Source: Methanothrix harundinacea 6Ac (GTDB lineage: Archaea > Halobacteriota > Methanosarcinia > Methanotrichales > Methanotrichaceae). Taken from it: a stretch of DNA of 64,000 nt. Positions 20 through 60,814 of this stretch are shown here, piece after piece. Each line of letters opens with the position of its first letter. Position 1 is the first letter of the stretch. The notes beneath the pieces were generated by a model. The model did no database searches, was not told where the DNA came from, and was given only the letters and a program-made list of their open reading frames with translations. The DNA lies in assembly GCF_000235565.1 (NCBI RefSeq), contig NC_017527.1:2232001-2296000 (forward strand). Direction: 5' to 3'. The position numbers and the translations under genes were made by a program.

Positions 20-3000
20 TTGTGCGATGCAAAAGCGGTCGTAGCTGGAGGAGGGAGATCTCTGTCTGGATCGCGTAGGCTTTTGATATCTATAACCTGC
101 CTTCTGATATTTCAGGGGGCCTATGCCATCGATATGCACTTCTCGGCGAGCGATGGCAGTGGAGATAGGGTGAGCATCTGGGACTCCTACAACGTCGACG
201 ACGACGTCAAGGTGTGGGGGAAGTCGTCGGCCGGCTTCGGGGAAGGCCTGAAGATCGACGACATCAGAGGGCTTGCAGGGCCCGGGAGCATCTACGCCGT
301 CCAGGGATATGCCGGGAGCGGCGGCTACGTCGGCATGAGCTACATCTATGCCGAAGATGCATCCCAGACCCTGGCCCGAGGGTCAGCCCATCTCACCCCC
401 GATGCCCTGGGGGTCGTCCAGGACGTCTCCATAAAGGACGCTGAGATGAGCGCCGTCGTCTCCACCGCAGACCGGTGCGGCCGGGGGGCGATGCAGCACG
501 CCTTCGTCGGGGACGGGTCCCTCAAATCCACCCAGACGATCAGCGTCAACGGAGGGATCGCCACCTCCCAGGATACTCAGATGGTCGGGTACCTTCCGAC
601 GGCCTTCGGGACCGCGGGTTACATGGACGTAAACATGGGCCCTGGAACTCTGAACCTCCAGGGTGAGGGAGCTGCCGTGGCGGTATCATCCCTGGACGTC
701 GCGGGGCCCGCGACCGTCGACTGTAAGCTCGCCACGGGGACGGGAAACAGCGCCTGGGCTTATGGCGACATAAGATATGCTGAAAGCGACCTCGGGGCGG
801 TAGGCGCGGCCGCGGGGGCGGGAAAGATCGACCTCGAAGCCGACTGGACAGGGGGCCTTCCGGGGCTCTTCATAGACGGCTATGGAGAGGCGGCGGCGGC
901 CGGAATCGGTGCCATCGGCCTGGATAACGAGATCAAAGGTACCCTGGAAGCCCGGACCGGGGATGCCGGAACCTCCGCCTCCGGCAGGGGCATTGAGGCC
1001 TCCAACAGGGAAGGCATCGTCGCCGCAGCAGCAGCAGCCGGAAACCTGGGGGTTGGGGTTGACCTCCAGAACGGCATCATCGGAGGTGGCGCGGAGGCTG
1101 CGGGCGTCGGAATCCTGGCAGAAGGCAGAAAGAATGAGATCACTAGCGAAACCCTGGCGGCAGGAACTGGATTCTATGGGACCGGCGCCTACGGCGGAGG
1201 CATTGAGGCCTCCAACAGAGTAGGAACCGTGGTGGCAGCCGCTGCCGCCGGGGGGCTAGGCGGGATCGTCGACCTCCAGAACGGTTTCATCGGCGGAGGG
1301 GCGGAGGCCGCTGGCGTGGGAGTGATGGCTGAAGGCCGGAGAAACTGGATCGCAAGCGACGTCCTGGCGGCCGGAACCGGATGGGATGGAACCGGCGCCT
1401 ACGGCGGAGGCATAGAGGCTCAGAACAGGGAGGGTGCGATTGGAGCTGCAGCGGCCGCCGGAGGCCTGGGTGCAGGTATCGACCTCCAGAACGGTTTCAT
1501 CGCAGGATGGGCGGAGGCCGCTGGCGTGGGAGTCATGGCTGAAGGCCGGAGAAACTGGATCGCAAGCGACGTCCTGGCGGCCGGAACCGGATGGTATGGA
1601 ACCGGCGCCTATGGCGGAGGCATAGAGGCTCAGAACAGGGAGGGTGCGGTTGGAGCTGGAGCGGCCGCCGGAGGCCTGGGTGCAGATATCGACCTCCAGA
1701 ACGGTTTCATCGCAGGATGGGCGGAGGCTGCTGGCGTGGGAGTCCTCGCAGAAGGATACAGAAACCGGATCAGCAGCGGTACCCTGGCGGCCGGAACCGG
1801 ATGGTATGGAACCGGCGCCATCGGCCAAGATATCGAAGCCTCCAACAAGGAGGGTGGAGTTGCCGCGGCCGCCGCCGCTGGCGGCCTGGGCGCAAGCTTC
1901 GACCTCCAGAGTGGATTCATAGCCGGAGGCGCAGAGGCCGCAGGAGTCGGAGTCCTCGCTGAAGGAAGAAGGAACGAGATCAGCAGCGGTACCCTGGCGG
2001 CCGGAACCGGATGGTACGGAACCGGCGCCATCGGCCAAGATATCGAAGCTTCCAACAAGGAGGGTGGAGTTGCCGCGGCCGCCGCCGCTGGCGGCCTGGG
2101 CGCAATCGTCGACCTCCAGAGTGGATTCATAGCCGGAGGCGCGGAGGCCGCGGGAGTCGGAGTCGTCGCCGACGGCAAGAAGAACGAGATCAGCAGCGGA
2201 ATTCTGGCCGCAGGGACCGGATTCTTCGGGACCGGCGCCCTCGGCGCGGAGATCGAAGCCTCCAACAAGGAGGGGTACGTCGTCGCCGCCGCCGCCGCTG
2301 GAGGCGTGGAAGGAGCATTCGACTTCAATAGCGGGAACGGCATCGTCGAGGCGGAAGGCGCCATCTTCGGCGCCGGGGCCGAAGGCGGCGAGAACGAGAT
2401 CGGCGTCGGATTGGTCGCCGCCAGGGTCGGAAACAGCGCCGACGTGATCGCGATTGATGTGAACGCCCGGAGCATCGAGGGTGCGGCGGGTACTGGCGTC
2501 GCCGCCGGAAACGCCGAGCTCCAGCTGACCGGCGGGACCCCGACCTCTCTCGTCGCTGAAGGGTCGGCCGTCGGCGCCGGGGGTATCGGCGCCACCGCTG
2601 ATGCCAGTGCCGACCTCCTTATGGCAGAGTCCGGAGACAGCACCTCAGCCTCAGGAGAGAATCTGCGGCTCACGGTCATAGAGGGCGATGGGATCATCGG
2701 TGCCATAAGCGGGACCTACGACTCCAGCGGACCTGACCGAGTTGCCAGCGTTGAGGGAGATGTAACGGCCGGGTCCGCCATGATCTGGGGCGACTTCAGC
2801 GCCGATACGAGCTCAAGCGCTTCGGCATCGGCCGAGAACGTGGGCGCGGTTGGGACCAACATATACCTCGGATCCTACGCCGACGATGGGACGGCTTACT
2901 CCGAGGTTTATTCCACGTTGGGTGCCGGTGGATTGAACTTTGGAGAGATGGAGGCGTATGCAGGAGACTCCACCCAGGCCAAACTGAAGTACAAAGTGGT

Positions 3001-3148
3001 GGGCAACTACCAGATCGTCGCTGTGGCCTCTAGCTCGAATCCGCCGGATTTTGATACGGATTCCGACGGAGGCTGGGCAATGACCATTAAAGACGTCAGC
3101 GGGGAGGCTTGGACCGACAACACCGGTGCCCATGCGGATGTGATCTGA
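20..3148 (+). CDS. Repeat-rich secreted surface protein (copy 1 of a tandem module)
   Basis: A 1042-residue Ala/Gly-rich exported protein with no recognised catalytic domain. A signal peptide is visible at about residues 18-37 (ITCLLIFQGAYA before the mature IDMHFSA). Residues ~290-770 consist of seven ~70-residue repeats, each carrying an IEASN/IEAQN turn, an Ala run, DLQNGFI and AEAAGVGV-AEGR-N. The regular hydrophobic and Gly turns suggest a beta-solenoid or fibre-forming wall component; this is inference. The start is the TTG at 20, chosen because the N-terminus then aligns with the paralogue starting near 4217 (shared GGRSLSG and the signal peptide); no ATG is available. The stop is directly followed by the ATG of the next gene, implying translational coupling. 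The promoter lies outside the window. It has no C-terminal membrane anchor, so its attachment to the cell is unclear. Confidence 0.8.
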   Translation: MCDAKAVVAGGGRSLSGSRRLLISITCLLIFQGAYAIDMHFSASDGSGDRVSIWDSYNVDDDVKVWGKSSAGFGEGLKIDDIRGLAGPGSIYAVQGYAGSGGYVGMSYIYAEDASQTLARGSAHLTPDALGVVQDVSIKDAEMSAVVSTADRCGRGAMQHAFVGDGSLKSTQTISVNGGIATSQDTQMVGYLPTAFGTAGYMDVNMGPGTLNLQGEGAAVAVSSLDVAGPATVDCKLATGTGNSAWAYGDIRYAESDLGAVGAAAGAGKIDLEADWTGGLPGLFIDGYGEAAAAGIGAIGLDNEIKGTLEARTGDAGTSASGRGIEASNREGIVAAAAAAGNLGVGVDLQNGIIGGGAEAAGVGILAEGRKNEITSETLAAGTGFYGTGAYGGGIEASNRVGTVVAAAAAGGLGGIVDLQNGFIGGGAEAAGVGVMAEGRRNWIASDVLAAGTGWDGTGAYGGGIEAQNREGAIGAAAAAGGLGAGIDLQNGFIAGWAEAAGVGVMAEGRRNWIASDVLAAGTGWYGTGAYGGGIEAQNREGAVGAGAAAGGLGADIDLQNGFIAGWAEAAGVGVLAEGYRNRISSGTLAAGTGWYGTGAIGQDIEASNKEGGVAAAAAAGGLGASFDLQSGFIAGGAEAAGVGVLAEGRRNEISSGTLAAGTGWYGTGAIGQDIEASNKEGGVAAAAAAGGLGAIVDLQSGFIAGGAEAAGVGVVADGKKNEISSGILAAGTGFFGTGALGAEIEASNKEGYVVAAAAAGGVEGAFDFNSGNGIVEAEGAIFGAGAEGGENEIGVGLVAARVGNSADVIAIDVNARSIEGAAGTGVAAGNAELQLTGGTPTSLVAEGSAVGAGGIGATADASADLLMAESGDSTSASGENLRLTVIEGDGIIGAISGTYDSSGPDRVASVEGDVTAGSAMIWGDFSADTSSSASASAENVGAVGTNIYLGSYADDGTAYSEVYSTLGAGGLNFGEMEAYAGDSTQAKLKYKVVGNYQIVAVASSSNPPDFDTDSDGGWAMTIKDVSGEAWTDNTGAHADVI
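880..2330 (+). repeat. Seven tandem 210-bp coding repeats
   Basis: The segment encoding GACCTCCAGAACGG recurs at about 1061, 1271, 1481, 1691, 1901 and 2111, with a degenerate copy near 2321. This is an exact 210-bp (70-codon) period. Neighbouring copies 3-4 and 5-6 are the most alike, which indicates expansion by local duplication. The high identity also creates long open frames on the other strand that are not genes. Confidence 0.9.
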
Positions 3149-4036
3149 ATGAGGACGGTATTCGTATATCTACTGCTCCTGGCGGGGCTGATCTCCTCAG
3201 CCTCCGCCGCCTCTTACACCTTCGGGGTGTACAACGTCACCGACGGCTCCTCCTTCTGGATCAGCCGCGTGAGCGCGAACATGACCCTCGACCTCTCCGG
3301 CTCGGTGGAGGGCGACATCGCCCCCATCTCCGTCACCCCCGCCGGGAGGGTTCTATCGCCTTACTACTCGGCCTCCTCCACCTTCGACGTCAACGACGTC
3401 AGGCTGAAGGAGAGGACCGCCGCCCTGGAGGGGACCTACAGCTCCGAGGAGGCGATATACCTCCAAGCCTGGGCTAAGGCCGCCGTCAACCGGACCTACT
3501 TCAAGCCCGCCGGAAGCGACGTCTGGACGATCACCCTCGAAGAGAACTGGCCCGTCAGGCTCAACTCCAGCAAGACCGTCGACTACGCCGGGAAGATGAT
3601 AAACGACCGGGACTCTGCCGGAAATAACGGCGACTCGGTGGGGTCGAGCTTCCTATACAACACCGAGCTGTCGAAGGAGAGGAACGTTGCCCTGCGGCTT
3701 GACCGGCTGAACGCCACCGTCATCGCCACCAACGATACCATCATCAGCGCCGAGGTATTCCCCACCAGGTCCACCGTCTACGACATCGCATCCCACTCCA
3801 CCGGGATCGCAGACCTCAGGTACCGCCAGGTAGACGTCCGGGGCGATTTGATCAACCTCGGGGAGGAGAGGTACAGCGGCACCTACGACATAACCCGGAG
3901 GGTCCAGATGGAGCTCGTCGATACGAACGTGACGAACAAGACCGACTGGCTCTCCTGTTGCATCGAAGGGTGCTCCGGCCTCGATCCCTGCGACACCAGC
4001 CCCTGGAGCGGGGCCGGGGTATTCGGATGCGTCTAG
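3149..4036 (+). CDS. Secreted partner protein with C-terminal cysteine cluster (copy 1)
   Basis: A 295-residue exported protein of unknown function. The signal peptide (VYLLLLAGLISSASA) is followed by a mature part rich in Ser/Thr and possible N-glycosylation sites (NVT, NMT, NRT, NSS, NAT, NDT, NKT). The last ~30 residues carry five or six cysteines (SCCIEGC, DPCDT, FGC), probably disulfide-bonded. Its ATG abuts the stop of the repeat protein upstream, so the two are expected to be co-translated. It is almost identical along its length to the product of 5227-6120. The arrangement suggests a chaperone, linker or co-assembling wall subunit for the large upstream protein; that is inference. Confidence 0.85.
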   Translation: MRTVFVYLLLLAGLISSASAASYTFGVYNVTDGSSFWISRVSANMTLDLSGSVEGDIAPISVTPAGRVLSPYYSASSTFDVNDVRLKERTAALEGTYSSEEAIYLQAWAKAAVNRTYFKPAGSDVWTITLEENWPVRLNSSKTVDYAGKMINDRDSAGNNGDSVGSSFLYNTELSKERNVALRLDRLNATVIATNDTIISAEVFPTRSTVYDIASHSTGIADLRYRQVDVRGDLINLGEERYSGTYDITRRVQMELVDTNVTNKTDWLSCCIEGCSGLDPCDTSPWSGAGVFGCV

Positions 4037-12972: not shown

Positions 12973-14229
12973 CTAGATCCGGGCATAGCTCGCGGCGGAG
13001 CCGAGCGCCTCCTCGATCCGGAGGAGCTGGTTGTACTTGGCGTTCCTCTCGCTTCGAGCGGGGGCGCCGGTCTTGAGCATCTCGGCGCCGAGGGCCACGG
13101 TCACGTCGGCGAGGGCGGAGTCCTCCGTCTCGGCGGACCTGTGGCTTGCCATCACCTTGAAGCCGTTTCTGAAGGCCATCCGGGCGGCGTCGAAGGCCTC
13201 GGAGACGGTCCCGATCTGGTTGAGCTTGAGCAAAAGCGCGTTGGTCGCCTTCATCTCGATCCCCTTCGCCAGCCTCTGGACGTTCGTAACGTAGATGTCG
13301 TCGCCGACGATGATCGTCCCCGGCAGCCGCGCCGTCAGGGCGGCGAAGTCCCCGAAGGCCTCCTCCTCGAAGGGGTCCTCGATGAGGATTATGGGATAAG
13401 TCGAAACGAGGTCGGCGTAGAAGTCGACCATCTCGCCGCCGGAGAGCTTCTTGCCGTCGATGGCGTAAGAGCCGTTTTCAAAGAAGCTGGAGGCGGCGGC
13501 GTCCATCCCGATCCCGATCTCTTTATCGTAGCCGGTGGCGTCGAGGGCGGACATCAGGGAGTCGAGGGCGTCAGCAGTCTTGTTCAGGGGCGGGGCGTAG
13601 CCTCCCTCGTAGCCGACGTTCGTCGCCCCAACGCCGTACCTCCCCCGGAGGATCTTTCCGAGGGCGTGGTAGGTCTCGGCGGCCATCCGCAGGCCCTCGG
13701 AGAAGCAGCTTGCTCCCTTGGGGAGGATCATGAACTCCTGGATGGCGAGGTCGTTACCGGCATGCTGGCCGCCGTTGAGGACGTTCAAGGAAGGCACGGG
13801 AAGGGTGGTGGTGTTGACGCCGCCGAGGTACTGGTACAGCGGGATCGCCAGCTCGTCGGCGGCGGCCTTGGCCACCCCCAGAGAGACCCCCAAAATCGCG
13901 TTGGCGCCGAGGTTCGACTTGTGGGAGGTCCCGTCCAGGGCGAGCATGAAGTTGTCGACGGCCCGCTGCTCGAGAGCGGTGATCCCGGACTCGATCAGCT
14001 TCGGCCCGATGACGTCGTTGACGTTCTTGACCGCCTGGAGGACGCCCTTGCCGCCGTAGCGGTCGTCGCCGTCTCGGAGCTCCAGGGCCTCGTGGGTCCC
14101 GGTCGAGGCGCCCGAGGGGACGGCGGCTCGGCCGAAGCCGCAGCAGGTCCAGACGTCTACTTCTACAGTCGGGTTTCCTCGCGAGTCGAGGATCTCGCGA
14201 GCGTGAATGTTCTCTATTTCGAATGACAT
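12973..14229 (-). CDS. eno: Enolase
   Basis: A 418-residue phosphopyruvate hydratase of glycolysis and gluconeogenesis. It starts with the family's IHAREILDSRGNPTVEVDV and contains PSGASTGTHEALELRD, NVLNGGQHAGND, the metal-binding LIEDPFEEEAF and GDDIYVTN, and the C-terminal LLKLNQIGTVSEAF and MASHRSAETED signature. The length is typical. The ATG at 14229 is ~36 bp downstream of a TATA-like box (TTAAATAA, about 14262-14268). Confidence 0.97.
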   Translation of the reverse strand: MSFEIENIHAREILDSRGNPTVEVDVWTCCGFGRAAVPSGASTGTHEALELRDGDDRYGGKGVLQAVKNVNDVIGPKLIESGITALEQRAVDNFMLALDGTSHKSNLGANAILGVSLGVAKAAADELAIPLYQYLGGVNTTTLPVPSLNVLNGGQHAGNDLAIQEFMILPKGASCFSEGLRMAAETYHALGKILRGRYGVGATNVGYEGGYAPPLNKTADALDSLMSALDATGYDKEIGIGMDAAASSFFENGSYAIDGKKLSGGEMVDFYADLVSTYPIILIEDPFEEEAFGDFAALTARLPGTIIVGDDIYVTNVQRLAKGIEMKATNALLLKLNQIGTVSEAFDAARMAFRNGFKVMASHRSAETEDSALADVTVALGAEMLKTGAPARSERNAKYNQLLRIEEALGSAASYARI

Positions 14230-14355: not shown

Positions 14356-17300
14356 TCAGGCGTTCTCCAGCCGGAGGAAGTGCAACCTTCCCGATGATTC
14401 GCCAGCTACGATGGTGACGCCATCGGGTCCGATAGTGCAACAACGGATTGAACCGTCTGCTGTGAAGGTAGCGACTATTTCACCGGTTTCCAGGTCCCAT
14501 ACCTTGAGGGTCTGATCGAAGGATGACGATACCGCTTTTCGACCGTCCGGGGTTACCGCCACCGCTCTGACCCAATAAGAATGGCCTTTCAGCGTCCTCA
14601 GCTCTTCGCCCTTCTCCAGGTCCCATACCTTAAGGGTAAGATCACCGGATGCCGATACCGCTCTCAGACCGTCCGGGGTCGCCGCCACCGCGTTGACCCA
14701 ATTGGAATGGCCTTTCAGCGTCCTCAGCTCTTCGCCCCTCTCCAGATCCCATACCTTGAGGGTCCGATCCCTGGATGCCGATACCGCTCTCCGACCGTCC
14801 GGGGTCACCGCCACCGCTCTGACCGAATTGGAATGACCTTTCAGCGTCCTCAGTTCTTCGTACCTCTCCAGATCCCATACCTTGAGGGTCTGATCGAAGG
14901 ATGCCGATACCGCTCTCAGACCGTCCGGAGTTACCGCCACAGCACTGACCGAATCGGAATGGCCTTTCAGCGTCCTCAGTTCTTCGTACCTCTCCAGGTC
15001 CCATACCTTGAGGGTATGATCATCGGATGCCGATACCGCTCTCCGACCGTCCGGGGTTACCGCCACAGCACTGACCCAATTGGAATGGCCTTTCAGCGTC
15101 CTCAGCTCTTCGTACCTCTCCAGGTCCCATACCTTGAGGGTCTTATCCCTGGATGCTGATACCACTCTCCGACCGTCGGGAGTCAACGCTACCGCGTTGA
15201 CCCAACAGTAATGACCTTTCAGAGTCAAAAGCATCTCGCCTCTCTCAAGGTCCCATACCTTGAGGGTTTGATCATCGGATGCTGAAACCGCTCTCAGACC
15301 ATCCGGGGTCACAGCCACCTCGTTGACCCAACTGGAATGACCTTTCAGGGTCAAAAGCATCTCGCCTCTCTCCAGGTCCCATACCTTGAGGGTTTGATCA
15401 TCGGATGCCGATACCGCTCTCCGACCGTCAGGGGTCAACGTTACCGCGTTGACCCAACTGGAATGACCTTTCAGAGTCAAAAGCATCTCACCACTCTTCA
15501 GGTCCCATACCTTGAGGGTTTGATCACCGGATGCTGAAACCGCTCTCAGACCGTTCGGTGTTACCTTCACCGCGTTGACCCAACAGGAATGGCCTATCAG
15601 GGTCCTCAGCTCTTCGCCCCTCTCAAGGTCCCATACCTTAAGGGTCAGATCACCGGATGCCGATACCGCCCTCAGACCGTCAGGGGTCACCGCCACCGCA
15701 CTGACCGAATTGGAATGGCCTTTCAGGGTCCTCAGCTCTTCGCCCCTCTCAAGGTCCCATACCTTGAGGGTCCGATCCCTGGATGCCGATACCGCTCTCC
15801 GACCGTCAGGGGTCACCGCCACCGCACTGACCGAATTGGAATGGCCTTCCAGGGTCCTCAACTCTTCGCCCCTCACCAGGTCCCAGACCCTAAGGGTCGA
15901 ATCATCGGATGCCGATACCGCCCTCAGACCGTCCGGGGTCACCGCCACCGCTCTGACCGAATTGGAATGGCCTATCAAGGTCCTCAGCTCTTCGCCCCTC
16001 TCCAGGTCCCATACCTTAAGGGTCCGATCACCGGATGCCGATACCGCTCTCCGACCGTCTGGGGTCACTGCCACCGCCCTAACCGAATCGGAGTGGCCTT
16101 TCAGTATTCGGAGCAGGGGTCCGCCCGGCGGCGTCAGGTTTGGGGTCATTGGGCGTATCCAGGATTCGTGTACACTCTCTCCAATGTGATCGAGGAGTGC
16201 CTGTATCGAGCGAGATGGCAGAGCCATCAATCGGCCCAGGATCTGACTTGCGAGCTGAGCTTTATCGGTGGCAAGAACGTGAGCCGAGAGTTGGAAAGCA
16301 TCACGCACCAAAAACGCGTCTGAATCTTCCGGAAGAAAATCGTAATCCGCAACGAGAGACGAAACATCTGTGGTTTCTAGCTTCGCTCTTATCCAATTAA
16401 AATCAAGGAGAATATTGCGCAGTTCATCTTTTCGCCCAGCTTCGATCAAATGGCGGGCCAAATGCTGAAAGATATAGCCGTCATCTGGACCGGTGTGCCA
16501 GCCGTCAAGACATTTCCGACGGTAAGCTTCCAGTAGGCGGTTGTGTAGCTCGGTGACGTCTTCAACCTGTTTTCTCACATAGTCGAATTGGAGGTCGTGA
16601 AGGCTCAAGCGTCCTTCATCAGATCGTCTCGCCAGCGACCGAGCGACAAATAGGTCGACCGCATCTTGGGATTCGTCCTCGTCAAGACCTTCCGGCGCCC
16701 AGAAGGTCTGCAAAACAGCTTCTGGGATAGGCGTATCTTCCGGGAATACTGCAAAATCAAAATAGCGAGATTGAAGATCAGGCTTCAGATTTTCTACACT
16801 TACCTGAATCGTCTTCAATAAGTCGTGATAGGGATAATGTGGAAAGTCACGTTCGATTTTATCGAGATCAGTACTTTGGAGCTTATGCAACACATTTTTC
16901 CAGCGATTAAGAGGTTTTCCTTGCAGCATGGCGCCGATTATGGCTAGCGCCAAAGGCAATCTGCCACATTCTTGCACAATCTCATTAGCCTCTCGGGGCA
17001 GAGAATCGGCATCTATACCAGCCCAATCCGCAAGCAGCTTCAGGGCCTTAGGCACCTCCAGAAGGTCCAACGAGTATTCCGAGCCACCCAAATTTGTGAT
17101 TATGTCTGCGTTTCTAGTGGTGATAAGCATCCTGCAGTTTGGCCCCAACGAGTCAAAGGCACCCGCGTCTCTGGCTTTCCATACATCGTCCAAGATTAGC
17201 AGGCAGACCTTGTCAGCTAGCAGCTCCAGCAGCTTTTCTTTGCCGTCATTTAAATTCTCGAAGACGCTTTCATCGCCCAAAATTCTGGCCAGCTTTGACT

Positions 17301-18054
17301 GAATTTGAAGCAGATCTGCCTCTCGGATATCTCGACCGATGCTCAGCCAAAATATCCCATCCGGAAAGGCCAGGCGGACTCCATCATCCCGCGCCACCAC
17401 CGCAGCCAGCACTGACTTTCCTATCCCGCCCATCCCCTGAACGCCGACCTTCTTAGAGACCCCAGTGATCCCGGTCGCCTTCTTTTCTCCGGAAAAAACT
17501 AGCTCTTTTATCCCCTTCAGCTCCTCATCGCGGGGGAGGAAGTTCGGCGGCAGCTCCGGGACGTTGACGAGCCTGCCTACCTTGCCGGGAAAGCGTTCGG
17601 GCTTGGGGACGGAATGGCCTTGGAGTCCAGGAAAGATGGGTGCTTCAGGTGGCCGTGTTCGTTCACGCTTCACTCCAGCGAGTAGGCTGTCCATAGCGAT
17701 CTTTTCATCGAGCCCGACGAGGTCGATATAGACGATGGGGCCCAGCAGTCCTCCGGGCTTGCATTCCCTGACGCGGACCGGAAGAAGTGAGCCCTTTTCG
17801 CCCTTCGGGTCCTTCTTGAATGCAGCTGCCCATTCTGGCTGGGTGTAAAAGGCCTCCAGATAATTCGGCGAGAGGACTGCGATCGTCCGCTCAGTCTCCC
17901 TGGAGGCTTTGTCCATCTCCAGCACGAAGTTGGAGCCTGGCCTAAAGTCCCAGACCTGGATCACGGTCGAATAGCCCGTCTCCTCCAGGTGCCAGGCGAT
18001 CCACTCCGCCCATTCTTTGTCGGCCTTGGTGTAGCTGATGAAGAAGTCTTTCAC
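14356..18054 (-). CDS. TIR-NB-ARC-WD40 STAND protein (NLR-like)
   Basis: A 1232-residue STAND ATPase with the architecture of an immune sensor. TIR domain, residues ~1-130: it opens DFFISYTKADKEWAEWIAWHLEE, and Glu74 in SPNYLEAFYTQPEW sits at the NADase catalytic position. NB-ARC, ~200-480: P-loop GMGGIGKS (207-214), Walker B LLILDDVW (285-292), RMLITTRN, GLPL-like CGRLPLAL (363-370), MHD-like LHDLQFDY. Helical linker, ~500-640. Then 14 WD40 blades to the end, enough for two seven-bladed propellers. In known relatives, ligand binding at the WD40 end drives oligomerisation and TIR NAD+ cleavage or signalling; that role here is inferred. The start is GTG (18054), ~29 bp after a TATA-like TTTTAAG. 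A DUF488 gene lies upstream on the same strand. The NB-ARC part is less GC-rich than neighbouring genes, suggesting transfer. Confidence 0.93.
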   Translation of the reverse strand: MKDFFISYTKADKEWAEWIAWHLEETGYSTVIQVWDFRPGSNFVLEMDKASRETERTIAVLSPNYLEAFYTQPEWAAAFKKDPKGEKGSLLPVRVRECKPGGLLGPIVYIDLVGLDEKIAMDSLLAGVKRERTRPPEAPIFPGLQGHSVPKPERFPGKVGRLVNVPELPPNFLPRDEELKGIKELVFSGEKKATGITGVSKKVGVQGMGGIGKSVLAAVVARDDGVRLAFPDGIFWLSIGRDIREADLLQIQSKLARILGDESVFENLNDGKEKLLELLADKVCLLILDDVWKARDAGAFDSLGPNCRMLITTRNADIITNLGGSEYSLDLLEVPKALKLLADWAGIDADSLPREANEIVQECGRLPLALAIIGAMLQGKPLNRWKNVLHKLQSTDLDKIERDFPHYPYHDLLKTIQVSVENLKPDLQSRYFDFAVFPEDTPIPEAVLQTFWAPEGLDEDESQDAVDLFVARSLARRSDEGRLSLHDLQFDYVRKQVEDVTELHNRLLEAYRRKCLDGWHTGPDDGYIFQHLARHLIEAGRKDELRNILLDFNWIRAKLETTDVSSLVADYDFLPEDSDAFLVRDAFQLSAHVLATDKAQLASQILGRLMALPSRSIQALLDHIGESVHESWIRPMTPNLTPPGGPLLRILKGHSDSVRAVAVTPDGRRAVSASGDRTLKVWDLERGEELRTLIGHSNSVRAVAVTPDGLRAVSASDDSTLRVWDLVRGEELRTLEGHSNSVSAVAVTPDGRRAVSASRDRTLKVWDLERGEELRTLKGHSNSVSAVAVTPDGLRAVSASGDLTLKVWDLERGEELRTLIGHSCWVNAVKVTPNGLRAVSASGDQTLKVWDLKSGEMLLTLKGHSSWVNAVTLTPDGRRAVSASDDQTLKVWDLERGEMLLTLKGHSSWVNEVAVTPDGLRAVSASDDQTLKVWDLERGEMLLTLKGHYCWVNAVALTPDGRRVVSASRDKTLKVWDLERYEELRTLKGHSNWVSAVAVTPDGRRAVSASDDHTLKVWDLERYEELRTLKGHSDSVSAVAVTPDGLRAVSASFDQTLKVWDLERYEELRTLKGHSNSVRAVAVTPDGRRAVSASRDRTLKVWDLERGEELRTLKGHSNWVNAVAATPDGLRAVSASGDLTLKVWDLEKGEELRTLKGHSYWVRAVAVTPDGRKAVSSSFDQTLKVWDLETGEIVATFTADGSIRCCTIGPDGVTIVAGESSGRLHFLRLENA
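14375..16115 (-). repeat. WD40 array: 13 near-identical 126-bp repeats plus one degenerate
   Basis: The 42-codon unit (GHS-xx-V-x-AVAVTPDG-xx-AVSAS-x-D-x-TLKVWDLERGEELRTL) recurs 13 times, followed by one decayed blade at the C-terminus. Copies are highly similar in DNA as well as protein, so the array is young or kept uniform by recombination. Confidence 0.9.
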
Positions 18055-18213: not shown

Positions 18214-18528
18214 CTACTCCTCGAACCACTCCGCCACCAGCCGCCGGTGGCAGAAGGCCCCCGCCCTCTCCCAGCAGAGGAGGATGGCGTCCTCGCCGAG
18301 GTCGGCATAGACCGTGGCGTGGTCGAGCTTCGAGAGGACCTCCGAGCGGTAGCGCCGGATGTACTCGTCCTCGTCGATGGCGCCGCTCTTCGCCGCCGCG
18401 AGGAGGCGCCAGGGTGGCGCCAGCGGCTCGTACGCGCGGCCGGTCCAGCCGCGAGGTTGGGTGCGGGAGATGGCGACGGCCCGGGGGTCGGAGCCGGACC
18501 GGGCGAAGTTGGAGGTCTGCATATCCAT
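18214..18528 (-). CDS. DUF488 family protein
   Basis: A protein of about 104 residues from the ATG at 18528 (MDMQTSNFARSG); an in-frame upstream start at 18567 is also possible. It shows the pattern of the DUF488 family: VAISRTQPRGW, YEPLAPPW, LLCWERAGAFCHRRLVAEW at the end, with the conserved Cys and His-Arg near the C-terminus. The biochemical role of the family is unknown. It lies 160 bp upstream of the TIR-NB-ARC-WD40 gene on the same strand, but that gene appears to have its own TATA box, so a functional link is not shown. Confidence 0.75.
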   Translation of the reverse strand: MDMQTSNFARSGSDPRAVAISRTQPRGWTGRAYEPLAPPWRLLAAAKSGAIDEDEYIRRYRSEVLSKLDHATVYADLGEDAILLCWERAGAFCHRRLVAEWFEE

Positions 18529-18631
18529 CAACGAATTTTTTTTGTAGATTCTATTGGGTTTTGACATTCAGGCCATAAAATGAAAGGCGGACAAGAAGAA
18601 AACGTAAATGGGGACGGTTGGCGGCCGCGGC

Positions 18632-57074: not shown

Positions 57075-60000
57075 TCAAATCTGAGGCGTTCTGGCGCTCG
57101 GCGGGATAAACGCATCTCGCAATCTCCAAACGGCTTCCATCGTCAGGGTTTCGCCTTCGAAGATGATCTGACGACTCTCTTTGTCCTCCCGATTCTTGAG
57201 GTATTGCGTAACATTCATCCAGCGGATTGTTCCTCCGTTGGTTCGTTCGTCAGTCTGACGGATAACGAGATAGACGTCGGCGGGCTGACTGACCCAATAT
57301 TGCAGGTGGCGGTCTTTTTTGACGTCGAAGACTTCCCGGCCGTCTCTCCGGCGCGTCCGCAGGTAGGAATTGCCGCTCTTGAGCTGGACGTAGATCTTCT
57401 TCCCGCTCGGCTGGCCGTCGTTGTCCCTGAATTCCACCTCGCCATCGATACCGTAATCGAACATGCTCACCGGGCGGAACACCTGGTTCGCCTCACCGCA
57501 AATCGCCATCATGTGACCGATCAGGATCTGCTCCAGCGCCTGCGTATCGAGCTCCCGCGTGGCAATCTCTTCCATGTCCAGGATCTTTCTCGCCACCGGG
57601 TCGCTCTTCAGTCGCTGTTCTATGTGATCGATCAACAGCACCCGCTCGTCGCAGTTTTGGCAGGTGATGAAATTCTTCCCCGAATCCAAGCGATTTCGAA
57701 CTATGGTGAGATTCGTAACGGGCGTGCCGCAATGGACGCATACATACCTCCGGTCCCGCCTTACGTCGCAGCCGTACTTGGCCAGGTGACGATGCACGTA
57801 CTCGATGAAGATCACCTTCAGCTCGTCCGGCGTCGCAACGTCGAAGAAGAGGCTGATCGTCGCCTCGCCTTCGCCCTGCAGGTTGTCGATCTTTAGGCCC
57901 AGCAGGTGCCCACGGCTGGAGGAGAACTCAGCAGCGTTCCGCCACAGCTCACGATGCTCGAACTCCTGACTGTACCAGAGCCGCACCACTAGCGTCGTCC
58001 AGATCGTCTGCCACTCGCCGCCAAAGGTATAGGAGACGAATACGTCGGGCTGCCACGGGAGGTTTTTCTCGCGGCGGTACTGCGAGGGGAAGACGAGCTG
58101 CCTGCCCTGCTCCGTATCTTCGGCGATGCAAAGAGAGTGATCGAGGAATGTCTGCACCATCGCCCGCAGCAGCAGCTCTTCGTCTGGCCGCGCGAGCCGG
58201 TCGACGCCCGTGAAATCGAAGTCCGGCCGGTAGATGTCGTCCTCCAGGACGCAGCCGATCTCGTCGGTGTGGGCGCGGGCGGGGCGGATGATCGCTCCGG
58301 CGTAGCCGTTCATAAGCTCAGGCTGCAGTAGCACCAGATCGCCGAACTTCAGTGGCAGGGCCAGACCGTGGTTGGCCAAGAGCGTCACCGCCGTGCGGAC
58401 GTCGGACTCGTCGAACTGCTCTCCCGGCAAGGTATTCTCCAGCCGCTGCGCCAGCTCAGCGAAGCGGAGCAAGCGGATGTCGGCCGAATCGCGCATCTTC
58501 AGTAGAGCGTTCTTCAGCTCGGCCAATAGCAGCGGTGTGGCAGTCCACGGCAGTTTTTCCCAGGGAATGCTGTCAGCGATGAGCCGCTTCAGCTTCGACG
58601 GCTGGCCTCCGTTCGCCTCGTCCGAACAGTTCTCGCCGGTCTTGGCGCTGGTGGCCAGCCATTTGGCGAAGCCATGCTCCTGGGCAAACCGTTTGATCTT
58701 GGCGTCGCTGAGCTTCATATATCCGACGTCAACTTGCGAGAAGATTAGCAGCCGGGCCGCTTCGCATTTCGATTTGTGGTTGCTTGCCGTGTCGAGAGCC
58801 TTGAGCCAGTCGCCCGCCTCGGCGAAGGGATCGTCCTTCTGCGGATTGATCAGCAGCAGGGCCAGCGCGGTCTCGTCGAGGAAGAGCCGGTGGATCAGTC
58901 GGTAGTCCTCCTGCCCGGCCAAGTCCCAGAGCAACGCCTCACTGTCCATCGTTGCGTCGGGCGGCAGCGGCAGCTCCAGCGGCCAGACGTTCATGCCGTG
59001 GGTGCGGTCTTTCACCACGTACTCGTCTTCAATCAACCGATATGCCAGCGAGGTCTTGCCGACAGCACCTTCGCCCAGCAAGACCACCTTGGCGTTGACG
59101 TAGCGGCGTGTGGGTTCGGCAGACGGGGCGGCGCGTACACCGGTGAGGCGGTAGATGTAGATCACGCCCCCAAATGTCCCGACTACGACCCGCGAACCAT
59201 CGGGGCTGAAGGCGACGGACGTCGGAGTTGGCCATCCTTCGGACGCTAGCACCTGCAAGCATGCCCCCGACATCCAATCCCAGAGCCGAACCGTACCGTC
59301 AATAAACCCCGTGGAGGCGATCAAGCTGCCGTCGGGAGAGATGGAGACCGAATGCACATCACTCTGATGGCCTTCCAGCGTTCCAACGCAGGTTCCGTCT
59401 TCCAGGTCCCAGACCTTGACGGTCATGTCCTCGGAACCCGAAACGGCAAACTGGCCGTCCAGCGTGATCTGGACGGATCGCACAATTCCCGAATGGCCCT
59501 TCAGTGTCGCCTGGCATTCGCCCGTTTCGAAGTTCCAGAGCCTGACCGTTCTGTCGAAAGAGCCGGAAACAAAGCGATTATGAGTTTCGTCCAACGCAAC
59601 TGAAACGGCTGGCCCAGTGTGACCTTGGAACTTTCGGATAGACTTGCCTGTCCCTCGATCCAATAGTGTTATTACCGAATTACTGCTACATACCAACAGT
59701 TGCTCCCTGTTTGACAATTCCTTGACACAATGAATTTCACCAAGATTAGAATCAAGCGACGAAAGCAGCTTTCTTTCCCTGATATCCCAGGTTCGGATTT
59801 TTCCATCGTTTGCAGACGATAATACGTAATCGGTTTGACAAGCTATGAACCGCACAGCTTTTGAATGTCCTGTCAGCGTCGCCAGGCACTCGCCGGTCTC
59901 CAGGTCCCAGATCTTGACAGTCTTGTCACCTGAGCCGGAAGCCGCCCATTTCCCATCTGGGCTGATGGCCACGCTATAGACCCAACCCTTGTGACCCGTG

Positions 60001-60524
60001 AGCTTGCGTTCCGACACAACCAGCGGCTTTGCCCGCTCCGGTGGCTTATCCGGCTTGAGCTTCCGCTTCGCCGGTTTCTTCTTCGGCTCGGGCCGTGGAG
60101 CGGGCGCCGCCGCTTCCGCCTCCTCCCTGCACGCAGCCAGCAGCTCGTCGAACGCGGCTGGCGTCTCCTGGCGGAAGTCCACGTACTTGTAGCGGCGCAG
60201 TGTGTCGGGCAGTGTGCACTCAGCCAGCAGCAGCGGGACGAAGCGGCGGCCGGAATTGCTGGGATCGCGGAAAAGGACCGTGCTGCGTTCGAGCGTCACC
60301 CACTCCGAGCCCAGCGCCGCGGGCGAGAGGCAGAGCACCTGCACCCGGGCCGCCTCAAGGCCGCCCTCGATGGCCAGGTAGATGTCGTCGCCCGGCTTGA
60401 TGACCCAGTCATCGAACCACACCCGAAGCCCGGCTTCCTTCAACCGCTCGGCCAGCTTGCGCACCTGGGGCTTATCCCGCGAGTTATGGCTCAGAAAAAC
60501 ATCATAGGCGAAGTTAGCTGGCAT
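57075..60524 (-). CDS. TIR-WD40-ROC/COR-zinc ribbon-DUF4365 multidomain protein
   Basis: A 1149-residue protein. TIR, ~5-130: YDVFLSHNSRDKP, VWFDDWVIKPGD, and Glu79 in SEWVTLE at the NADase position. Basic Pro/Lys linker, 140-168. Seven WD40 blades, ~174-463. ROC GTPase: P-loop GEGAVGKT (484-491), G3 DLAGQE (534-539), G4 SQVD in place of NKxD, G5 SAK. A COR-like winged-helix part follows, containing PLKFGDLVLLQPELMNGYAG. A zinc ribbon (C929/C932, C955/C958) comes next. The C-terminal DUF4365, ~1000-1140, has Asp1027, Glu1029 and YVQLKSG spaced like a PD-(D/E)xK nuclease site. It is probably a sensor coupling a GTPase switch to NADase and/or nuclease effectors; this role is inferred. Monocistronic, between metabolic genes; the WD40 part has locally lower GC. 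Confidence 0.9.
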   Translation of the reverse strand: MPANFAYDVFLSHNSRDKPQVRKLAERLKEAGLRVWFDDWVIKPGDDIYLAIEGGLEAARVQVLCLSPAALGSEWVTLERSTVLFRDPSNSGRRFVPLLLAECTLPDTLRRYKYVDFRQETPAAFDELLAACREEAEAAAPAPRPEPKKKPAKRKLKPDKPPERAKPLVVSERKLTGHKGWVYSVAISPDGKWAASGSGDKTVKIWDLETGECLATLTGHSKAVRFIACQTDYVLSSANDGKIRTWDIRERKLLSSLDSNLGEIHCVKELSNREQLLVCSSNSVITLLDRGTGKSIRKFQGHTGPAVSVALDETHNRFVSGSFDRTVRLWNFETGECQATLKGHSGIVRSVQITLDGQFAVSGSEDMTVKVWDLEDGTCVGTLEGHQSDVHSVSISPDGSLIASTGFIDGTVRLWDWMSGACLQVLASEGWPTPTSVAFSPDGSRVVVGTFGGVIYIYRLTGVRAAPSAEPTRRYVNAKVVLLGEGAVGKTSLAYRLIEDEYVVKDRTHGMNVWPLELPLPPDATMDSEALLWDLAGQEDYRLIHRLFLDETALALLLINPQKDDPFAEAGDWLKALDTASNHKSKCEAARLLIFSQVDVGYMKLSDAKIKRFAQEHGFAKWLATSAKTGENCSDEANGGQPSKLKRLIADSIPWEKLPWTATPLLLAELKNALLKMRDSADIRLLRFAELAQRLENTLPGEQFDESDVRTAVTLLANHGLALPLKFGDLVLLQPELMNGYAGAIIRPARAHTDEIGCVLEDDIYRPDFDFTGVDRLARPDEELLLRAMVQTFLDHSLCIAEDTEQGRQLVFPSQYRREKNLPWQPDVFVSYTFGGEWQTIWTTLVVRLWYSQEFEHRELWRNAAEFSSSRGHLLGLKIDNLQGEGEATISLFFDVATPDELKVIFIEYVHRHLAKYGCDVRRDRRYVCVHCGTPVTNLTIVRNRLDSGKNFITCQNCDERVLLIDHIEQRLKSDPVARKILDMEEIATRELDTQALEQILIGHMMAICGEANQVFRPVSMFDYGIDGEVEFRDNDGQPSGKKIYVQLKSGNSYLRTRRRDGREVFDVKKDRHLQYWVSQPADVYLVIRQTDERTNGGTIRWMNVTQYLKNREDKESRQIIFEGETLTMEAVWRLRDAFIPPSARTPQI

Positions 60525-60814
60525 GACCTATCCCCAATGTGTCGGCCCTTGCATGATTGCGGTCGCCAGCGTCAGCAGGCCAGCGACTAGGCTCACCAGC
60601 GGCGATGGAGCGGAGTGGAACTGTCATCGTAGAGCCCCTTGTCATTATCGGTATCTTTGCCCTCTTCCATCGATTTACTAGATCGCTTATTTAAGTTTCT
60701 CCAATTATGTCGGGATCGGGTCGTCATCGATGCGCTGATGCTCTAACGATGTCCTCCACCGTCAGCTCACATTCACCGGAAATCCTGATATAAACCGCCG
60801 GCAAAAATCCGTCC
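60525..60814. other. Intergenic region between the TIR-ROC gene and the methyltransferase gene
   Basis: No coding frame with normal composition is visible. It carries a moderately AT-rich segment near 60640-60715 that may hold promoters for both divergent genes; no clear repeat was found. Confidence 0.4.

What the first reader, a model, noticed from the sequence alone, without database searches (positions are those of the whole stretch)
14356..18054. NLR-like TIR-NB-ARC protein with 14 young WD40 blades that vary at specific surface positions
The 13 intact blades are almost identical except at the two residues after GHS (DS, NS, CW, SW, YW, NW), the residue after the next Val (R, S, N), and the residues on both sides of the SAS-x-D-x-T aspartate (G, D, R, F / R, S, L, Q, K, H). 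In fungal STAND proteins such as HET-D/HET-E, WD40 arrays with high internal conservation vary at just such positions, which form the ligand face, and evolve by repeat shuffling. This archaeal gene shows the same signature, with TIR as the effector. Fourteen blades equal two full propellers.
Basis: partly seen in the sequence, partly recalled or inferred. Interest (0 to 1): 0.82.

Follow-up and report, generated by a model that had tools for sequence, protein, structure and literature searches.

The report
Archaeal TIR receptor with diversifying WD40 sensor
A filament-forming methane-producing archaeon carries a receptor built like animal APAF-1, with a likely NAD-cutting or death domain, an ATPase switch and a double WD40 ring whose binding face varies at the same four positions as fungal self/non-self receptors, and comparison with a sister species suggests that whole sensors are swapped between genes.

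Summary
The gene is real and correctly described, with two corrections: the blades are 79% identical (aa), not 'almost identical', and the 14th is degenerate. It encodes TIR_2, NB-ARC, APAF1-like winged helix, APAF-1 helical domain and 13+1 WD40 blades, modelled as two seven-bladed propellers (best solved match 2YMU). Variation is concentrated on the top face. Codons 7, 9, 25 and 27, named beforehand by the fungal het-d/het-e study, are enriched in variation (exact p=0.0002), with omega 1.60 here and 1.39 (CI 1.08-1.75) over five archaeal genes, against 0.55 at other exposed codons. Blades evolve in concert within each gene.

New here: in sister species Ca. Methanocrinis natronophilus the gene at the same locus has the same TIR-NB-ARC half but a sensor half belonging to a different paralog. 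The join lies at residue ~489, just after the LHD motif; AU tests show conflicting trees for the two halves. A Methanothrix locus shows a similar break.

The kind itself (highly repetitive prokaryotic STAND-WD40 proteins with variable hotspots, TIR/STAND immunity) is known. I file this as a new variant: an archaeal, HET-E-like diversifying NLR family with sensor-cassette exchange. Ligand, NADase activity and immune function are untested.

The parts
14356..18054 (-). whole gene: TIR-NB-ARC-WHD-helical-WD40 receptor, 1232 aa ('hA')
17695..18045 (-). TIR_2 domain, residues 4-120; candidate catalytic glutamate E74 in 'TQPEW'
   Evidence: Pfam E 1e-34; E74 aligns with the glutamate of TLR 'WCQYEL'
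16789..17451 (-). NB-ARC ATPase, residues 202-422, Walker A GMGGIGKS at 207, Walker B LLILDDVW at 285
   Evidence: Pfam E 2e-34; motifs
16579..16779 (-). APAF-1-like winged helix, residues 426-492, with LHD (MHD-like) motif at 485-487
   Evidence: Pfam, motif position
16588..16590 (-). residue 489: position of the module join seen when this gene is compared with the sister-species gene and paralog hB
16339..16554 (-). APAF-1 helical domain, residues 501-572
   Evidence: Pfam E 9e-15
14467..16104 (-). 13 WD40 blades of 42 aa, residues 651-1196
14359..14466 (-). degenerate closing blade, residues 1197-1232; a similar closing blade is found in family members hB, sA, sB, g25 and g13
12973..14229 (-). 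enolase, downstream flank of the receptor site (context only)
   Evidence: Pfam, synteny
18214..18567 (-). DUF488 protein, upstream flank of the receptor site (context only)
   Evidence: Pfam, synteny

Best explanation
This is an archaeal NLR-like (STAND) immune receptor whose sensor is under diversifying selection. At rest the double WD40 propeller and the helical domain hold the NB-ARC switch closed. A ligand bound across the propellers' top faces (probably a viral or other foreign protein) opens the switch, the protein oligomerises, and the clustered TIR domains become active, most likely depleting NAD+ and stopping or killing the affected cell in the filament. The repertoire is renewed at three levels: amino-acid change at codons 6, 7, 9, 25 and 27 of each blade; amplification and recombination of blades inside the array; and exchange of whole sensor cassettes (helical domain plus propellers) between paralogs at a join just after the LHD motif, with effector domains also differing at the N terminus. 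Shown here: domains, top-face variation, concerted evolution, a mosaic gene. Inferred: ligand class, oligomerisation, NADase activity, immune function.
For: Domain order matches APAF-1 (phmmer to Apaf-1 covers residues 183-937, E 1e-121; Pfam). Variation sits at the fungal codons (exact p 0.0002). Omega at codons 7/9/25/27 is 1.60 (CI 1.01-2.52) in this gene and 1.39 (1.08-1.75) over five archaeal genes; 2.03 (1.49-2.70) at 25/27; control exposed codons 0.55 (0.44-0.66). 12 distinct six-residue faces among 13 blades. All 13 blades are nearest to blades of the same gene. The DUF488-enolase site is occupied in two species and empty in two others. Mosaic: informative sites favour hA 268:56 before residue 489 and hB 107:17 after it, 0 of 2000 shuffles as extreme; AU p 1e-4 and about 1e-91 against the exchanged trees. 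A second break of the same kind is seen in Methanothrix. Different effectors on the same body.
Against: No functional data. The gene sits between housekeeping genes (enolase, gyrase), not in a recognised defence island, and PADLOC gives only partial domain-level hits. Omega is a counting estimate on recombining repeats, and its lower bound is barely above 1 in this gene. No within-species variation could be examined. NADase activity rests on one conserved glutamate, and the alignment to solved TIRs is weak (E 7e-6 to 7e-4).
Confidence: 0.68

Rival explanations
1. The top-face columns are simply the least constrained positions of a young WD40 array. The blades were amplified recently and drift; the pattern reflects relaxed structural constraint, not selection for new specificities.
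For: In the older, more diverged relative g13 omega at the same columns is below 1 (0.58), and bottom positions vary nearly as much there. The confidence interval in this gene alone starts at 1.01. Variable hotspots are a general feature of highly repetitive WD40 proteins (PMC5587647).
Against: Relaxation predicts omega up to 1, not 1.39 (1.08-1.75) over five genes or 2.03 (1.49-2.70) at codons 25/27, and it predicts similar values at other exposed codons, which have 0.55.
Confidence: 0.2
2. The protein is a TIR-NB-ARC signalling switch for an endogenous cue (for example morphology, filament state or cell-cell communication) and not an immune receptor; the propellers bind an internal partner.
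For: It lies between housekeeping genes at a site where a related gene is also found in the sister species. From memory, the likely host species has a quorum signal controlling filament form (see also abstract of PMC3991700).
Against: An endogenous partner does not call for diversifying top faces, an exchanged sensor half or presence/absence among congeners.
Confidence: 0.1
3. The mosaic sister-species gene is an assembly artefact, and there is only ordinary divergence of one receptor family.
For: The Mx genome was assembled from 100-nt Illumina reads (PMC10598746), contig coverage is about 9, and repeats of this kind misassemble (PMC12222747).
Against: Both flanks of the locus are on the same contig, so two false joins would be needed, and the leftover halves are not found elsewhere in that genome. 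The join is upstream of the repeats in unique sequence. A second case exists in another genus.
Confidence: 0.1

Closest known systems
Podospora anserina NWD/HNWD receptors HET-D, HET-E, HET-R
   Same: STAND switch plus highly similar 42-aa WD40 repeats; variable codons 7, 9, 25, 27; concerted evolution and exchange between family members (PMC1805685); a double propeller proposed for active alleles (PMC12222747).
   Different: NACHT and HET domains instead of NB-ARC and TIR; fungal. Repeat-number polymorphism within the species is shown there and not here. Their second propeller is modelled from canonical plus cryptic repeats; here there are 13 canonical blades plus one degenerate.
Cyanobacterial STAND-WRAP proteins (PDB 2YMU) and the coupled TIR-STAND genes
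   Same: Fourteen highly similar blades in two 7-bladed propellers after a STAND ATPase; proposed prokaryotic innate immunity with rapid turnover (PMC9218822); best structural match.
   Different: There the blades are near identical and TIR is on a neighbouring gene; here TIR, switch and propellers are one protein and the blades have diversified at the face. The sister species' locus B has a separate TIR gene next to the receptor.
APAF-1
   Same: NB-ARC, winged helix, helical domain and double WD40 propeller in the same order.
   Different: TIR in place of CARD; ligand unknown (APAF-1 binds cytochrome c); APAF-1 blades are old and diverged (own knowledge).
Bacterial Avs and bNACHT antiphage STAND proteins
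   Same: STAND switch with N-terminal effector and C-terminal sensor (own knowledge; Avs5 in PMC12931631).
   Different: No Avs or bNACHT model among the PADLOC matches; different sensors, and no comparable top-face diversification known to me.
Highly-Repetitive WD40 class of Hu et al. 2017
   Same: Internal identity above their 0.7 cut-off (0.79 here) and variable interaction hotspots (PMC5587647).
   Different: A statistical class, not a mechanism; no module exchange or locus comparison in the passages read.

Membership tests
STAND / AP-ATPase (NB-ARC) receptors | NB-ARC P-loop ATPase with Walker A, Walker B, GLPL-like and MHD-like motifs, followed by a winged helix | tested here: met
   Pfam NB-ARC and APAF-1-like_WHD above cut-off; motifs located at 207, 285, 366, 485
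STAND / AP-ATPase (NB-ARC) receptors | N-terminal effector and C-terminal repeat sensor | tested here: met
   TIR_2 and WD40 by Pfam
STAND / AP-ATPase (NB-ARC) receptors | ligand-induced, ATP-dependent oligomerisation | not testable with these tools
   needs biochemistry
Highly-Repetitive WD40 (Hu et al. 2017) | internal repeat identity above 0.7 | tested here: met
   mean 0.79 aa; their exact measure was not reproduced
HET-D/HET-E-like diversifying receptors (works like) | hypervariability and omega above 1 at codons 7, 9, 25, 27 | tested here: met
   exact p 0.0002; omega 1.60, CI 1.01-2.52; pooled 1.39, CI 1.08-1.75; counting method only
HET-D/HET-E-like diversifying receptors (works like) | concerted evolution and exchange of repeats or sensors between family members | tested here: met
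   blade nearest neighbours and pS, four-gamete and LD decay, mosaic gene
HET-D/HET-E-like diversifying receptors (works like) | repeat-number polymorphism within a species | not tested
   one genome per species held; the sister-species count (4+1) is unreliable because of short reads
Fungal NWD gene family (is a member of) | NACHT domain with a fungal effector such as HET | tested here: not met
   NB-ARC and TIR_2 instead
TIR NADase effectors | conserved catalytic glutamate of the TIR fold | tested here: met
   E74 aligns with the glutamate of TLR 'WCQYEL'; weak alignment
TIR NADase effectors | NAD+ cleavage on activation | not testable with these tools
   needs an assay
Known antiphage systems in PADLOC-DB 2.0.0 | full-length match to a system model | tested here: not met
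   only partial TIR-region and WD40-region matches
DGR-diversified conflict proteins | reverse transcriptase encoded in the genome | tested here: not met
   no PF00078 hit in the whole genome, control genomes positive

The most novel reading that the evidence does not exclude
Methanotrichaceae archaea run a modular, NLR-type receptor repertoire in which sensor cassettes (helical domain plus double WD40 propeller) recombine between loci at a preferred hinge just after the MHD-like motif, so that one effector-switch can be re-armed with a different sensor, while blades inside each sensor shuffle and their top-face codons diversify: a recombination-driven recognition system in archaea, convergent at codon level with fungal allorecognition.
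Probability: 0.4. Interest if true: 0.8.

Novelty: new variant of a known kind. Interest (0 to 1): 0.6.

Why it matters
It puts the fungal HET-type mode of receptor diversification (the same four codons, concerted repeats, exchange between genes) into an archaeal, APAF-1-like receptor, and it gives a concrete pair of sister-species genes that share effector and switch but differ in sensor. That makes two open questions testable: what archaeal NLR-like proteins recognise, and whether cassette exchange at the switch-sensor hinge yields working receptors. It also bears on the proposal that such conflict systems gather in multicellular prokaryotes (PMC7159879), since Methanocrinis strains are filament-forming and culturable (PMC10598746).

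Tried and rejected
DGR-driven mutation: rejected, no reverse transcriptase in the genome. 'Relaxed loops only': disfavoured by the control codons, although the older g13 array shows omega below 1, so it stays as a rival. Using the sister species' four-blade array as proof of repeat-number change: dropped, because the genome comes from 100-nt reads. Naming the organism by database title did not work: the genome's own records may be left out of the collection. PADLOC gave no system. Paper searches for archaeal NLR-WD40 work gave nothing specific, which is not proof that none exists. A second structure prediction (TIR-NB-ARC half) was not run because Pfam already settles those domains; loci taken by place were not sent to the predictor because its stated rule does not list them.
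Full report
WHAT IS THERE. The ORF 14356-18054 (-) is intact, 1232 aa, with a GTG start. Pfam places TIR_2 at residues 4-120, NB-ARC at 202-422, an APAF-1-like winged helix at 426-492 and the APAF-1 helical domain at 501-572. Then come 13 blades of exactly 42 aa (651-1196) and a degenerate closing blade (1197-1232). phmmer aligns residues 183-937 with Apaf-1 at E 1e-121, and the blades with 2YMU at E 1e-203. The motifs needed for an ATP switch are present: GMGGIGKS, LLILDDVW, LPLAL, and LHD at 485. AlphaFold2 on residues 640-1232 (single sequence, mean pLDDT 84, pTM 0.51) gives two confident halves with a weak point at the blade 7/8 boundary. The best solved match is 2YMU, a pair of 7-bladed propellers (TM 0.72). 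The low pTM means that the relative placing of the two rings is not reliable.

ORGANISM. The genome has 2,571,034 bases, 2,559,043 of them in the main contig. From memory these sizes fit Methanothrix (Methanosaeta) harundinacea 6Ac, proposed as Methanocrinis harundinaceus (PMC10598746). No tool printed this name for the window, so it is an inference. One congener in the search, G005, is Ca. Methanocrinis natronophilus strain Mx, because its contig has the same length and gene positions as the named record.

VARIABLE SITES. Mean blade identity is 79% aa and 83% nt, so the blades are young but not near identical. Mean synonymous difference between blades of this gene is 0.30, minimum 0.07; enolase between the two species gives 0.27. 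Column entropy peaks at 27, 6, 25 and 9, then 36, 39, 41, 7 and 18. Two independent papers fix in advance where to look. Wu et al. 2012 (PMC3419727) define top-face hotspots R1-2, R1 and D-1; by their rules these are columns 7, 9 and 25 here (permutation p 0.007). Paoletti et al. 2007 (PMC1805685) find codons 7, 9, 25 and 27 under positive selection in the het-d/het-e family, flanking constrained codons 8 and 26. V8 and D26 are invariant here too, so the numbering agrees. The exact probability of this four-column set is 0.0002 in this gene, 0.0001 for five highly repetitive family members averaged, and 0.004 in this gene when only 20 plausibly exposed columns compete (I chose those 20 by hand). 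On the model, columns 5-7 and 9 lie in the d-a loop and the start of strand a, and 25-27 in the b-c turn. Mean entropy is 0.96 in top loops against 0.45 in bottom loops, and 0.20 and 0.07 in strands b and c.

SELECTION OR RELAXATION. By Nei-Gojobori counts with Jukes-Cantor correction, omega at the fungal codons is 1.60 (bootstrap CI 1.01-2.52) in this gene and 1.39 (1.08-1.75) over five genes. Codons 25 and 27 alone give 2.03 (1.49-2.70). Other variable exposed codons give 0.55 (0.44-0.66). Relaxed constraint alone does not predict values above 1 at the top face only. But the method ignores phylogeny and recombination, so this is support and not proof.

CONCERTED EVOLUTION. All 13 blades of this gene have their nearest relative inside the same gene. 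Four-gamete conflicts are frequent (116 of 276 site pairs) and linkage falls with distance within the blade (p 0.049 here; 0.0005 to 0.015 in three other genes). The thirteen blades carry 12 different six-residue faces.

SENSOR EXCHANGE (new here). In Ca. M. natronophilus the same site, between a DUF488 gene and enolase, holds a TIR-NB-ARC-WD40 gene (L048 4153-6732). Up to residue ~489 it groups with this gene: 84% aa over residues 165-489, against 55% to the paralog hB. After that it groups with the paralog: 85% to hB against 68% to this gene over 490-650. hB lies elsewhere in the window's genome (L007 7832-11029). Informative sites are 268:56 for hA before the best break and 17:107 after it, with 0 of 2000 shuffles as extreme. 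Trees of the two halves conflict, and AU tests reject the exchanged topology for each (p 1e-4 and about 1e-91). The break is just behind the LHD motif, near the border of winged helix and helical domain. Which species carries the recombinant is not settled. A chimeric assembly would need two false joins and leftover halves, and no leftover halves were found. In Methanothrix-family genomes G025 and G020, two species share a locus (2.4 kb upstream at 91% nt) with trypsin-NB-ARC-WD40 genes that are only 24-57% identical up to the helical domain and 75-82% identical after it. Both of these are draft genomes. These two cases are why I call it a cassette system; two cases do not make it a rule.

EFFECTOR EXCHANGE AND PATCHINESS. 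The same NB-ARC-helical-WD40 body carries TIR (this gene), an N terminus without a Pfam domain that looks by eye like a signal peptide and a transmembrane segment (hB), an AAA_31 domain with a separate TIR gene beside it (sB), or a trypsin-like protease (G025, G020). hB and sB sit at the same locus, with collinear flanks, but have different effectors. The site next to enolase is empty in two congeners, with a DUF488-enolase gap of about 140-170 bp; in two more the gap is 1.0-1.4 kb without a detectable receptor and was not analysed further. TIR proteins of other genomes of the family end in TPR arrays instead.

HOW IT LIKELY WORKS. See the best explanation. Shown: architecture, top-face variation, concerted evolution, mosaicism. 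Inferred: autoinhibition and oligomerisation (established for the STAND class), NAD+ cleavage (E74 in the TIR motif), ligand class and immune role.

WHAT IS KNOWN ALREADY. Highly repetitive prokaryotic WD40 proteins with diverse hotspot sites (PMC5587647), their continuing amplification including in Euryarchaeota, and a proposed immune role for proteins of the STAND/TIR kind (PMC9218822) are published. So is the fungal model (PMC1805685, PMC4986451). Not found in the papers searched: codon-level convergence in an archaeal receptor, and sensor-half exchange between archaeal loci. The library holds open-licence papers only.

CAVEATS. Blade counts in short-read genomes are unreliable (PMC12222747), so the sister array of 4+1 blades is not used as evidence of repeat-number change. 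hB has 10+1 blades in the window's own two-contig genome, which does not make two rings of seven; this is unexplained. Members with 13+1 blades recur in two other species (sB and g13; one g13 blade is inferred from spacing).

Noticed in passing
window 57078-60527 (-): A second TIR-WD40 protein (1150 aa) with a Roc/Ras-type GTPase and a C-terminal DUF4365 domain: a Roco-like architecture.
   Followed up: partly
window 20-3148 (+): Secreted-looking repeat protein with about six 210-bp tandem units rich in GAEAAGVGV, followed by another secreted-looking ORF at 3149-4036.
   Followed up: no
L007 7832-11029 (-): Paralog hB has 10+1 blades, which does not make one or two rings of seven; either real or a collapse in the assembly.
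   Followed up: no
L049 12684-13340 (-) and 8476-12714 (-): A separate TIR gene directly upstream of the AAA_31-NB-ARC-WD40 gene, echoing the coupled TIR/STAND genes of cyanobacteria.
   Followed up: partly
L097 1285-4145 (G005 contig 11): A second enolase, 72-75% identical, in two pieces with stops in one of them: decaying duplicate.
   Followed up: no
window 18214-18567 (-): DUF488 protein ends about 20 residues earlier than its counterpart next to the sister-species receptor.
   Followed up: no
L057 4429-4856: Remnant of a TIR domain (56-68% identical in two pieces, with a TAG stop) in another congener: a decayed family member.
   Followed up: partly
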